Source: Conexibacter sp. SYSU D00693
GTDB taxonomy: Bacteria > Actinomycetota > Thermoleophilia > Solirubrobacterales > Solirubrobacteraceae
Assembly (NCBI RefSeq): GCF_017084525.1
Contig: NZ_CP070950.1
Coordinates: forward strand, 1,798,001-1,862,000
Length of the DNA stretch: 64,000 nucleotides
Reading direction: 5' to 3'
Shown: piece after piece, positions 22,301-54,783 of the stretch
Layout: every line of letters begins with the position of its first letter
Position numbering within the stretch: position 1 is the stretch's first letter
Made by a program: the position numbers and the translations under genes
Notes under the pieces: model-generated
Databases searched by the model: none
The model's input: only the letters and a program-made list of their open reading frames with translations
Told to the model about the DNA's origin: nothing

Positions 22301-23814
<1,514 letters not shown>

Positions 23815-23821
23815 GGCGCAG

Positions 23822-23913
23822 CGGAGCGGCGAAGGAGTCGAACCTCCCCGGCGCGGTCGACGCGCCGCCAACGGCTTTGAAGGCCGTTCGGGGCACCGGC
23901 CCCGGGCCGCTCC
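23822..23913 (-). tRNA. selC: tRNA-Sec (UCA anticodon)
   Basis: The 92-nt gene folds with an 8-bp acceptor stem (GGAGCGGC pairing with GCCGCTCC), a 5-bp T stem with loop TTCGACT, a long variable arm (GGCGCG pairing with CGCGCC) and anticodon loop CTTCAAA giving UCA. The 8+5 arrangement and G discriminator are typical of bacterial tRNA-Sec. CCA is not encoded. It lies 16 bp behind selD and only 7 bp before the selB start codon, so it is probably released from a common transcript. Confidence 0.95.
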
Positions 23914-31554: not shown

Positions 31555-32889
31555 CTAGGCGCTCAGCAGGACCGGCGCCGCGGAACCGCGGTCGAGCTTG
31601 ACCACGATCGCCACGCGGCGGCTGTGGCCGGGCCGGCCGACCCAGAGCCTGAACCGCCGGTCCCTGGGGAGGCGGACGGTCCGGGTGACCTTGCGGTCGC
31701 CGTGGCTCACGGTGACGGCGAGCTTCGCGCCGGCGGTCCTGCCCGGGCCGGTCACGGAGCCCTCGATGCGCACGCGGCTGCCCTTGCGCTGGGCCTTCGC
31801 GTGGACGACGAGCTTGGGCTTGGCCCCGATGCGCGAGCTGAGCGCGGCGGCGGCCTGCCCGACGTCGGCGCCCGGCGGGCGGCCGAAGGCCTGGGCGAAG
31901 CGCAGCCGGCCGTCGGCCCCGATGGCGATGCCGACCCCGAGCTCGGTGAAGGCCGGGTCGAGCAGCGTGTGGCGGTGCGTCGGACTGGCCATCCACGCCT
32001 GGATGACCTCGTAGGCCGTGCTCTGGCCCCAGGCGAGGTTCTCGCCCCACGCGGCAGCGGCGTAGCCGACGGTCGCCAGGCGGTCCTCGAACGTCACGCC
32101 CGCCGGCGTGGGCGGCGGGGCGTTGTGCGCGAAGAAGCCGCGGCGCGCCATGTCGGCGGCGTGGCCCTCGGCCTCCTGGTCGAGCTGGCCGTCGACGCCG
32201 AGGCGCCCGTCCATCCCCGCCTCGCGGCGCTGCGCGTCGGTGAGGCAGCGCAGGGCCGCCTCGACGCGCGCCCTCGTGGCGGCGGAGAACTCGAGGCCGG
32301 CGTCGTCGCAGACCGTCGGCGGGACGGGGACCTTGGCCGAGGCGGGCAGCGCGGCGTCCAGCGCCTTGGCGTTCGCGGCGCTCTGGCTCGTGCCCGTCGA
32401 GGTGTTCGGGCGGCTCGTGGTGCCGCCGGTCGGGCTCGGGGACGGGATGCCGCTCGAGCCCGCGTACGGGTCGCTCTGGGGGCCCGAGCCGGGCTTGCCG
32501 GGCTTGCCCGAGCCGCTGGGCACCGTCGTCGTGGGCGTCGTCGACGTGGTCGTCGTCGGCGGCGGCGGGTCCTGCGTCGTCGTGGTCGGCGGCGGCGGGT
32601 CCTGCGTCGTGGTCGTCGTCGGCGGCGGGTCCGGCGTCGTCGTCGTGGTGCCCGTGGTCGTGGTCGTGGGGTCCGTCGTCGTCGTGGTCGACGGGTCGGT
32701 CGTCGTGCCGGTGGTCGGGCAGGTCGACGGGTCGGTCGCCGTGTCCGTGCAGGTCGGCGGCGCGTCGTCGGCCGCGGCCATGCCGACCGCGAGCCCGGCA
32801 CCGCCCACCGCGGCCCCACTGACGACGAGCGCGATCGACGTCGCGCGGCGCAGGCGCCCCGCCTGGCCCTTCCCTGGGTGACCCCCCAC
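31555..32889 (-). CDS. Secreted CAP-domain (SCP/PR1-like) protein with Thr/Pro linker
   Basis: GTG 32889 gives 444 residues with a signal peptide (RRATSIALVVSGAAVGGAGLAVGMAAADD). A ~90-residue Thr/Pro linker with QDPPPPTTTT repeats leads to the CAP domain (residues ~245-365): AADMARRGFFAHN, YAAAAWGENLAWG, AWMASPTHRHTLLDPAFTELGVG. A C-terminal beta domain rich in basic residues (GDRKVTRTVRLPRDRRFRLWV) may bind the envelope. Bacterial CAP proteins are secreted or wall-associated; their activity is uncertain. It converges on the GH15 gene. Confidence 0.88.
   Translation of the reverse strand: MGGHPGKGQAGRLRRATSIALVVSGAAVGGAGLAVGMAAADDAPPTCTDTATDPSTCPTTGTTTDPSTTTTTDPTTTTTGTTTTTPDPPPTTTTTQDPPPPTTTTQDPPPPTTTTSTTPTTTVPSGSGKPGKPGSGPQSDPYAGSSGIPSPSPTGGTTSRPNTSTGTSQSAANAKALDAALPASAKVPVPPTVCDDAGLEFSAATRARVEAALRCLTDAQRREAGMDGRLGVDGQLDQEAEGHAADMARRGFFAHNAPPPTPAGVTFEDRLATVGYAAAAWGENLAWGQSTAYEVIQAWMASPTHRHTLLDPAFTELGVGIAIGADGRLRFAQAFGRPPGADVGQAAAALSSRIGAKPKLVVHAKAQRKGSRVRIEGSVTGPGRTAGAKLAVTVSHGDRKVTRTVRLPRDRRFRLWVGRPGHSRRVAIVVKLDRGSAAPVLLSA
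32551..32640. repeat. Three tandem 30-bp repeats in the CAP-protein linker
   Basis: Positions 32551-32580, 32581-32610 and 32611-32640 are near-identical 30-bp units carrying GGCGGGTCC, which on the coding strand specify the decapeptide QDPPPPTTTT with variants. Copy number is likely to vary between strains. Confidence 0.75.
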
Positions 32890-42991: not shown

Positions 42992-44221
42992 ATGGACCAC
43001 GCCGCACTGCGCCGCCGCCTCGACGCCGCGACCGCCGGGCTCGAGGCGCCCTTCGCGGTCGTCGACCTCGACGCGTTCGACGCCAACGCCGCGGACATGG
43101 TGCGCCGGGCCGGCGGCACGCCCATCCGCCTCGCCTCGAAGTCCGTGCGCTGCGTCGCCCTGCTGCGACGAGCGCTGGAGCGCCCGGGCTTCGCGGGCGT
43201 CCTGGCCTTCACCCTGCCCGAGGCGCTGTGGCTCGCTCGCCAGGGCTTCGAGGATGTCGTCGTCGCCTACCCGACCGCCGACCGCCACGCCGTCGGCGAG
43301 CTCGCCGCGGACGCGCGGCTGCGCGAGCGGGTCACGGTCATGGTCGACGACGTGGCACACCTCGACCTGCTCGCCGATGCGACGGGGTCTGACCCCGTCG
43401 CACTGCCGGATGCGACGGGGTCTGACCCCGTCGCATTGCGGGTGTGCCTCGACCTGGACACGTCGTGGCGGCCGCTCGGTGGGCGGGTGCGCATCGGCGC
43501 ACGCCGCTCGCCGCTGCGCACGCCGGCGCAGGCGGCGGCCCTGGCGCGCGCGGCGCTCGACCGCGGCCTGGTCGTCGACGGCGTCATGGCCTACGAGGCG
43601 CAGGTGGCGGGCGTGGGCGACGCGCCGCCCGGCAAGCGGCTCTACGGCACCGCGCTGCGGGCGGTGCAGGCCGGGTCGATGCGCGAGCTGCGGGCCCGCC
43701 GTGCCGCGGTGGTGGCCGCCGTGCGCGGCGTCGTGCCCGACCTGCGGTTCGTCAACGGCGGCGGCACCGGCTCGCTCGAGCGCACCGCGGCGGAGCCCGC
43801 CGTGACGGAGCTCGGCGCGGGCAGCGGCCTCTTCGGCCCCACCCTCTTCGACGGCTACCGCGCCTTCCGCCCGCGCCCCGCCGCGCTCTTCGCGCTGCCG
43901 GTCGTCCGCCGCCCCGGCCCGGGCGTCGCGACGGTGCTCGGCGGCGGCTACCCCGCCTCCGGCGCCGCGGGCCGCGACCGGCTCGTGTCCCCGTTCCTGC
44001 CCGACGGCCTGCGCCTCGACGGGCAGGAGGGCGCCGGCGAGGTCCAGACCCCGGTCCTCGGCGCCGCCGCGGACGGCCTGCGCATCGGCGACCGCGTGTG
44101 GGCGCGCCACGCGAAGGCCGGCGAGCTCTGCGAGCGCTTCGCCGCCTTGCACCTCGTCGCCGGCGACGAGGTGGTCGAGACCGTCCCGACCTACCGCGGC
44201 GAGGGCCAGACCTTCCTCTGA
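42992..44221 (+). CDS. PLP-dependent amino-acid deaminase/aldolase (alanine racemase-fold)
   Basis: The 409-residue protein has an alanine-racemase/D-threonine-aldolase N-terminal barrel: APFAVVDLDAFDANAADMVRR and the PLP lysine K50 in IRLASKSVRC, then LRFVNGGGTGSLERT and a C-terminal domain with GDRVWARHAKAGELCERF. The family includes D-threonine aldolase and amino-acid deaminases; the substrate is unknown. Residues 129-149 (two DATGSDPVAL copies) are an insertion encoded by two identical 25-bp palindromes. Confidence 0.85.
   Translation: MDHAALRRRLDAATAGLEAPFAVVDLDAFDANAADMVRRAGGTPIRLASKSVRCVALLRRALERPGFAGVLAFTLPEALWLARQGFEDVVVAYPTADRHAVGELAADARLRERVTVMVDDVAHLDLLADATGSDPVALPDATGSDPVALRVCLDLDTSWRPLGGRVRIGARRSPLRTPAQAAALARAALDRGLVVDGVMAYEAQVAGVGDAPPGKRLYGTALRAVQAGSMRELRARRAAVVAAVRGVVPDLRFVNGGGTGSLERTAAEPAVTELGAGSGLFGPTLFDGYRAFRPRPAALFALPVVRRPGPGVATVLGGGYPASGAAGRDRLVSPFLPDGLRLDGQEGAGEVQTPVLGAAADGLRIGDRVWARHAKAGELCERFAALHLVAGDEVVETVPTYRGEGQTFL
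43378..43435. repeat. Two identical 25-bp palindromes, 33 bp apart, inside a gene
   Basis: Positions 43378-43402 and 43411-43435 each carry the same perfect inverted repeat with 12-bp arms around a central T (core GACGGGGTC-T-GACCCCGTC). The 33-bp period keeps the reading frame and adds two copies of DATGSDPVAL to the protein. Confidence 0.85.
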
Positions 44222-54584: not shown

Positions 54585-54594
54585 GCGTGAACCC

Positions 54595-54735
54595 CTCTCT
54601 TCGGTGCCTGCGGGGTTAGCTGTCGGGCTCGCGCCAAGAGAGCGGCGCTACACGGCTTCTGCGTGATTCGCCCCGGACCGGGTACGTCCCGGTCAGTGGG
54701 TCCCCCGCCCGCCGCCCTGAGGACGGGTGGCGGTT
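54595..54735 (-). promoter_or_regulatory. Cyclic-di-AMP riboswitch (ydaO/yuaA class)
   Basis: On the minus strand the leader carries GGGGGACCCA (54697-54706 region), GGGGCGAATC (54665-54674) and GAGCCCGACAGCTAACCCCG with GCAGGC after it (54606-54630), the three conserved segments of the ydaO class in the same order as B. subtilis ydaO. It lies just before the Shine-Dalgarno of the cell-wall hydrolase, the class usually controlled by this riboswitch in actinobacteria. The outer stem boundaries are approximate. Confidence 0.9.
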
Positions 54736-54783
54736 CGGCTGGTCTTCAAGACTGCGCGCGGCAGCGTAGCAACCGCGACGGTC

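What the first reader, a model, noticed from the sequence alone, without database searches (positions are those of the whole stretch)
43378..43435. Two identical 25-bp palindromes inserted in frame in a PLP enzyme gene
The repeats are identical and 33 bp apart. They add two copies of DATGSDPVAL between barrel segments of the enzyme. The core GACGGGGTC-T-GACCCCGTC belongs to the same symmetrical class as the selA/selB repeats, suggesting one repeat family that is tolerated in genes.
Basis: seen in the sequence. Interest (0 to 1): 0.6.

Follow-up and report, generated by a model that had tools for sequence, protein, structure and literature searches.

The report
Repeated palindrome element inside enzyme gene
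A short self-complementary DNA element, one of a family scattered through this bacterium's genome and found on both sides of a transposase gene, sits in frame inside an enzyme gene and lengthens a floppy loop of the protein; it looks like a new variant of a known kind of bacterial mobile repeat.

Summary
In detail: two 25-bp palindromes, 33 bp apart, lie in frame in a D-threonine-aldolase-like gene. Their 13-bp core occurs 88 times in the 4.43-Mb genome (reversed control 0) and flanks, on both sides, one of three IS200-like Y1 (RAYT-type) transposase genes; the other two have their own palindromes (38 and 98 exact cores). The 25+8+25-bp layout recurs at 33-bp spacing in the second family and in a relative, with differing spacers: the geometry of a REPIN. 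None of 109 orthologues aligned has the peptide. It includes the only stretch below pLDDT 50 in a confident model. Removing one 33-bp unit leaves an orthologue-sized loop, so the net gain is about 11 residues, not 22. Similar in-frame arrays sit in linkers of three other genes (kinase, thioredoxin/NHL, MFS), probably five. The selA/selB repeats are a different family with another transposase. Intragenic REPs are known; new here are the lineage, head-to-tail two-element arrays, and high-copy palindromes beside transposases resembling a subclass reported to lack REP-like sequences. Movement is inferred, not shown.

The parts
42992..44221 (+). PLP enzyme gene (alanine racemase N-terminal / D-threonine aldolase-like, 409 aa) that hosts the element
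   Evidence: ORF; PF01168 E 1.1e-7; PDB D-threonine aldolase 7dib E 1.5e-6
43378..43402 (.). REP copy 1: 25-bp palindrome TGCGACGGGGTCTGACCCCGTCGCA (symmetrical, 'double-foot' form)
   Evidence: sequence; class counts
43403..43410 (.). 8-bp spacer CTGCCGGA, predicted loop of the doublet hairpin
43411..43435 (.). REP copy 2: identical 25-bp palindrome (27 bp with A43410/T43436)
43378..43435 (.). 58-bp REPIN-like doublet, core spacing 33 bp; the 62-nt stretch around it folds as one long ssDNA hairpin (-35.9 kcal/mol, z -11.25); covers residues D129-A148
22658..22707 (.). Comparison only: selA/selB-region doublet of the other palindrome family (GTGCCAGGCAC at 22658, GTGCCTGGCAG at 22697; spacing 39)
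   Evidence: family of transposase gene 2, not of the element at 43378

Best explanation
The feature is a REPIN-like doublet of a dispersed palindromic (REP-type) element. The element's core flanks an IS200-like HUH/Y1 transposase (RAYT type) encoded elsewhere in the same genome (C1:286115-286909). Inferred mechanism: on single-stranded DNA, for example at a replication fork, the doublet folds into a hairpin; its transposase cuts and joins the folded strand and so copies or moves it to new places. It landed in an exposed helix-strand loop of the PLP enzyme. There the 33-bp unit is a multiple of three and the frame used has no stop, so the reading frame survived with a disordered loop about 11 residues longer. 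Shown here: the dispersed family, the same palindrome on both sides of the transposase gene, the recurrent doublet geometry, absence in orthologues, the in-frame low-confidence loop. Inferred: that this transposase moved it, that movement uses single-stranded DNA, and that the enzyme works.
For: 88 genomic copies, reversed control 0. The genome has 3 Y1_Tnp genes. The one at 286 kb is flanked on both sides, in inverted orientation, by this palindrome, and its stop codon lies inside one copy; the other two are flanked by GGGGACTGTCCCC and GTGCCTGGCAC palindromes, which have 38 and 98 core copies. Two of the transposases were scanned against NCBIfam and match REP_Tyr_transpos (E 3.2e-18 and 5.6e-21, bits 66 and 75 under a cut-off of 80). 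Of 13 Y1 rows with a recognisable HUH...Y pair, own genome included, 11 have palindromes within 170 bp upstream and 5 of the 13 have this same core. 5 of 7 genomes with at least 10 copies have a Y1_Tnp match, against 10 of 54 others (Fisher p 0.008, not corrected for relatedness). Core spacing 33: 10 of 25 neighbouring pairs in the second family, and 11 of 11 G020 places picked for it, with differing spacers. Orthologues: 0 of 29 and 0 of 80 carry the peptide in the loop. AlphaFold2 model mean pLDDT 92.9, insert blocks 56 and 69.
Against: No empty site or movement was observed, so mobility is inferred. Two palindrome-rich genomes (G020, G004; 64% and 68% complete) have no Y1_Tnp match, and G017 has 19 copies while its detected RAYT carries a different palindrome. 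Within this family 33 bp is only the fifth commonest spacing (5 of 59; 45, 24, 42 and 54 are commoner), so the doublet argument rests mainly on the second family and on G020. With one unit removed the loop has the orthologue length (11), which a simple 58-bp insertion into an 11-residue loop does not give: either sequence was lost at insertion, or one copy replaced the loop and was then duplicated. The RAYT tree is poorly resolved and does not follow the palindrome cores.
Confidence: 0.8

Rival explanations
1. A single palindrome arose in or replaced the native loop, and a plain 33-bp tandem duplication (replication slippage) made the second copy; no doublet was ever inserted as a unit. This concerns only how the second copy arose and overlaps with the best explanation.
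For: Removing one 33-bp unit gives an 11-residue loop, the commonest orthologue length (35 of 80 are 11, 32 of 80 are 12). The bases after each copy, CTGCCG and TTGCGG, are similar. Many arrays in this family seem to have grown by local duplication (near-identical 45- and 42-bp units).
Against: Core spacing 33 recurs with unrelated spacers in this genome (1110428, 1593394, 3936880), in the GTGCCTGGCAC family and in G020, which slippage alone would not predict. It still needs a mobile or copied palindrome for the first copy.
Confidence: 0.35
2. An ordinary enzyme loop whose codons happen to be palindromic.
For: It is in frame and sits at a loop of variable length (9-14 residues in 80 orthologues).
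Against: The same core occurs 86 more times elsewhere in the genome, inside unrelated genes in several reading frames and between genes; no aligned orthologue has the peptide there.
Confidence: 0.02
3. A regulatory site: the palindromes are binding sites or terminators kept for function and spread by selection rather than transposition.
For: Eight long-arm singletons sit close behind or overlapping stop codons in several cases, as terminators would (read by eye).
Against: Arrays of up to 8 copies, copies inside unrelated coding regions, and palindromes on both sides of transposase genes fit a mobile element better; only 8 of 88 copies are of the long-arm class. No expression data.
Confidence: 0.08

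Closest known systems
REPINs and RAYTs (Bertels and Rainey 2011, PMC3116915; abstract and passages seen)
   Same: REP doublets with preferred spacing, less-conserved spacer and a long ssDNA hairpin; each family linked to its own Y1 tyrosine transposase gene.
   Different: There the spacings are 71 and 110 bp and the REPs are inverted pairs; here the core spacing is about 33 bp and most neighbours in this family have the same orientation (57 of 59). No GTAG tag.
TIRtrons / TIRYT (Di Nocera et al. 2013, PMC3733652; sections 15 and 16 read, other passages seen) and TnpA_REP subclass 2.1 (PMC6006769; sections 12, 13, 20, 27 read)
   Same: Y1 transposase with a C-terminal HTH-like extension flanked by inverted repeats that fit GGGGWSAS; GGGGTCAG and GGGGACAG here both fit. 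TIR families of moderate copy number were reported in some species.
   Different: PMC6006769 reports no REP-like sequences near subclass 2.1 genes; here the flanking repeats are short palindromes with 38-98 exact core copies, doublets and arrays. Subclass membership was not tested by phylogeny.
Intragenic REPs and Rickettsia palindromic elements (PMC3733652 section 15)
   Same: Palindromic elements in frame inside genes, often as dimers or clusters.
   Different: Different core and lineage; the CGTC-type repeats there (which include the Rickettsia ones) have no associated transposase.

Membership tests
REPIN (REP doublet) | Short palindromic repeats over-represented in the genome | tested here: met
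   88 copies, control 0
REPIN (REP doublet) | Doublets with preferred spacing and variable spacer forming a hairpin | tested here: met
   Hairpin; 33-bp spacing 10 of 25 pairs in the second family and 11 of 11 G020 places picked for it. In this family itself only 5 of 59 pairs.
REPIN (REP doublet) | Pairs in inverted orientation | tested here: inconclusive
   57 of 59 neighbours have the same central-base orientation; a near-perfect palindrome can pair either way, but the asymmetric copies are head to tail
REPIN (REP doublet) | Mobility | not testable with these tools
   no close strains or reads
RAYT / TnpA_REP transposase | Y1_Tnp domain with HUH and catalytic Y, gene flanked by the repeat in inverted orientation | tested here: met
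   NCBIfam REP_Tyr_transpos bits 66 and 75 against cut-off 80
GTAG-tagged REP | Unpaired 5' GT(A/G)G at the hairpin foot | tested here: not met
   consensus cnccgaTGCGACGGGGTCTGACCCCGaGCg, no GTAG
CGTC-tagged REP | Terminal unpaired CGTC, 8-9 bp stem with A/T at the first positions, 4-5 nt loop, no dedicated transposase | tested here: not met
   The string CGTC is present but paired in the window copies, the symmetry centre is one base, and a transposase gene is flanked (family features)
TIRYT / subclass 2.1 | C-terminal HTH-like domain | tested here: inconclusive
   weak HTH matches at the C-terminus of all 3 transposases, E about 0.002-0.25, all below cut-offs
TIRYT / subclass 2.1 | Flanking repeats fit GGGGWSAS | tested here: met
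   GGGGTCAG and GGGGACAG for transposases 1 and 3; not for transposase 2 (GTGCCTGGCAC)
TIRYT / subclass 2.1 | Position in the Y1 transposase phylogeny | not tested
   no subclass reference sequences were at hand; one search holds only relatives of this genome

The most novel reading that the evidence does not exclude
In this lineage a TIRYT-like Y1 transposase class drives head-to-tail arrays of two alternating elements (24-bp TGCGAC-GGGGTCTGACCCC-GAGCR and 21-bp TGCGACAKGCCCTGGCACCGR). Both lengths are multiples of three, the palindrome core is open in five of six frames, and the frames used mostly encode soft linkers (GSDPVA, GQTPSH, PVPGHVA). The system would then act as a generator of protein linkers as well as a genomic parasite.
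Probability: 0.25. Interest if true: 0.7.

Novelty: new variant of a known kind. Interest (0 to 1): 0.5.

Why it matters
It ties Y1 transposases that resemble a subclass reported to lack REP-like sequences to high-copy palindromes with REPIN geometry, in an actinobacterial lineage (Solirubrobacterales, inferred) for which three paper searches found no such report in the held library. It also offers natural cases in which repeat DNA lengthens protein loops and linkers in frame, each with a nameable candidate transposase, so recognition and movement can be tested directly.

Tried and rejected
Ordinary loop: rejected. One family with the selA/selB repeats: rejected at family level. CGTC-type REP: considered because CCCCGTCGCA holds CGTC; rejected on stem, loop and pairing. 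Rfam: no match at this place (one search lists only a c-di-AMP riboswitch and tRNA-Sec). RAYT tree against palindrome core: no correspondence; 2 of 10 inner branches well supported. Frame test: 20 of 20 spacings in the arrays judged intragenic are multiples of 3 against 30 of 39 elsewhere (Fisher p 0.017); weak and partly circular, since the genes were picked by open frames. MFS homologues were too distant (30-36%) and their inter-domain loop too variable to date that insertion; the query stretch is 50 residues against 43-59 in 6 homologues. Thioredoxin/NHL orthologues could not be searched. A solved structure for transposase 1 by sequence: none at E 0.1. The exact string GGGGTCTGACCCC is in 0 held papers.

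Full report
Observation. Two identical 25-bp palindromes lie at 43378-43402 and 43411-43435, separated by 8 bp, in frame in the 409-aa ORF 42992-44221. No other place in the window matches the inner palindrome within 3 mismatches. The host protein is alanine racemase N-terminal/D-threonine aldolase-like (PF01168; the solved structures found are D-threonine and D-3-hydroxyaspartate aldolases).

A genome-wide family. The core GGGGTCNGACCCC occurs 88 times in the 4.43-Mb genome and the reversed control 0 times; all 88 positions are. I fetched the stretches around all of them and read them with the window. They fall in 30 groups under a 400-bp grouping; 59 neighbouring pairs lie within 120 bp where random placement would give about 0.2. 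Read with the central T, 74 of 88 have a TGCGAC foot on the 5' side (one mismatch allowed), 6 have other feet and 8 are a long-arm class. Of the 74, 53 end GAGCR, 12 GTGCG, 3 otherwise, and 6 are symmetrical (TGCGAC...GTCGCA), both window copies among them. A second element, TGCGACAKGCCCTGGCACCGR, alternates with the first in several arrays, which explains periods of 24, 45 and 66 (read by eye). Neighbours keep the same orientation in 57 of 59 pairs; [quoted passage not shown]

Three transposases, three palindromes. The genome has three Y1_Tnp (PF01797) genes. Gene 1, between the clusters at 286007 and 286901, is flanked in inverted orientation by this palindrome, and its stop codon is the TGA inside a copy. 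Gene 3 (3380 kb) is flanked by GGGGACTGTCCCC palindromes and gene 2 (2919 kb) by GTGCCTGGCAC-type palindromes, one copy imperfect; both coding regions run into the downstream palindrome. Exact core counts are 38 and 98, with controls 0 and 4. Genes 1 and 3 match NCBIfam REP_Tyr_transpos, below its cut-off (gene 2 not given to that call). All three have weak C-terminal HTH matches.

Relatives. Of 61 genomes (own included), 12 have the exact core and 7 have at least 10 copies; 15 have a Y1_Tnp match. Of 24 Y1_Tnp match rows, 13 gave a recognisable HUH...Y pair in my script, three of them from the own genome; the other 11 rows were left out of this count. Eleven of the 13 have palindromes within 170 bp upstream, five with this core (read by eye). 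The two without (G001, G006) have Q-A-H in place of the HUH motif as my script found it, and their genomes hold no copy of this core. Against the reading, G004, G017 and G020 are palindrome-rich without a detected cognate gene; G004 and G020 are only 68% and 64% complete. In 396 genomes of the phylum 45 have the core, and this genome has the most.

Doublet geometry. In the second family 10 of 25 neighbouring pairs are exactly 33 bp apart, with differing spacers. All 11 G020 places that I picked because they showed 33-bp pairs confirm that spacing, in both relative orientations; this selection makes the G020 count illustrative, not a rate. In this family itself 5 of 59 pairs are at 33. The window doublet has the same 25+8+25 layout, and the 62-nt stretch around it folds as one hairpin (-35.9 kcal/mol, z -11.25). 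This is how REPINs are described: doublets with preferred spacing, poorly conserved spacer, hairpin (PMC3116915, abstract and passages).

The insertion. None of 29 orthologues from unnamed relatives (29 held loci; 8 further match rows without loci were not aligned) and none of 80 named orthologues (80 kept of 188 found) carries the peptide in the loop; one, L107, has GSDP elsewhere. Loops are 9-14 residues in the 80 and 7-12 in 28 of the 29 (one of 41), against 22 here. So the net gain is about 11 residues, and one unit alone would give an ordinary loop length. In an AlphaFold2 model (27 orthologues, mean pLDDT 92.9) the insert is a low-confidence loop, with the only segment under pLDDT 50 (135-139), between helix 121-131 and strand 150-154.

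Other genes. The same kind of peptide occurs in frame in a PknB-like kinase between the kinase domain and a hydrophobic stretch (L050), in a thioredoxin/NHL protein between the two domains (L057), and in an MFS transporter between its halves (L063); in these three and in the window gene the best coding frame agrees on both sides of the array. Two more are probable: an ECF sigma factor tail (L054, best frames differ on the two sides) and a protein without a clear family (L048). The peptides are mostly GSDPVA and GQTPSH. I did not show that these five insertions are absent from orthologues.

Known or new. Intragenic REPs, REPINs and cognate transposases are known. The closest class is the TIRYT/subclass 2.1 transposases, whose inverted repeats fit GGGGWSAS (PMC3733652 section 16; PMC6006769 section 20). 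For that subclass PMC6006769 reports no REP-like sequences nearby. Here similar genes come with high-copy palindromes of REPIN geometry. Subclass membership itself was not established. Searches for actinobacterial reports found none, within the held library only.

Noticed in passing
window 22658-22707: Doublet of the GTGCC(A/T)GGCAC family near the sel genes (tRNA-Sec at 23823-23913); spacing 39, second copy with one mismatch.
   Followed up: yes
L068, L069, L070, L078, L080, L087, upstream of the transposase start: A similar G-rich leader (GGGGGCGA... CC(T/C)(T/A)A(C/A/G)AG(A/G)GG(G/A)) precedes the ATG in several of these genes, including the two without palindromes (by eye).
   Followed up: no
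L078 (G006) and L080 (G001): Y1 transposase relatives with Q-A-H in place of the HUH motif as found by script, no flanking palindrome upstream, and no copy of this core in the genome.
   Followed up: partly
window 54590-54750 (-): c-di-AMP riboswitch (RF00379, 75 bits).
   Followed up: no
window 32524-32738: Imperfect CGT/GTC-rich tandem repeat, periods 3 to 36.
   Followed up: no
L053, L056, L059-L062, L067: Eight long-arm singletons of the palindrome, several directly behind or overlapping stop codons; they combine core 1 with arms like those of the GGGGACTGTCCCC family.
   Followed up: partly
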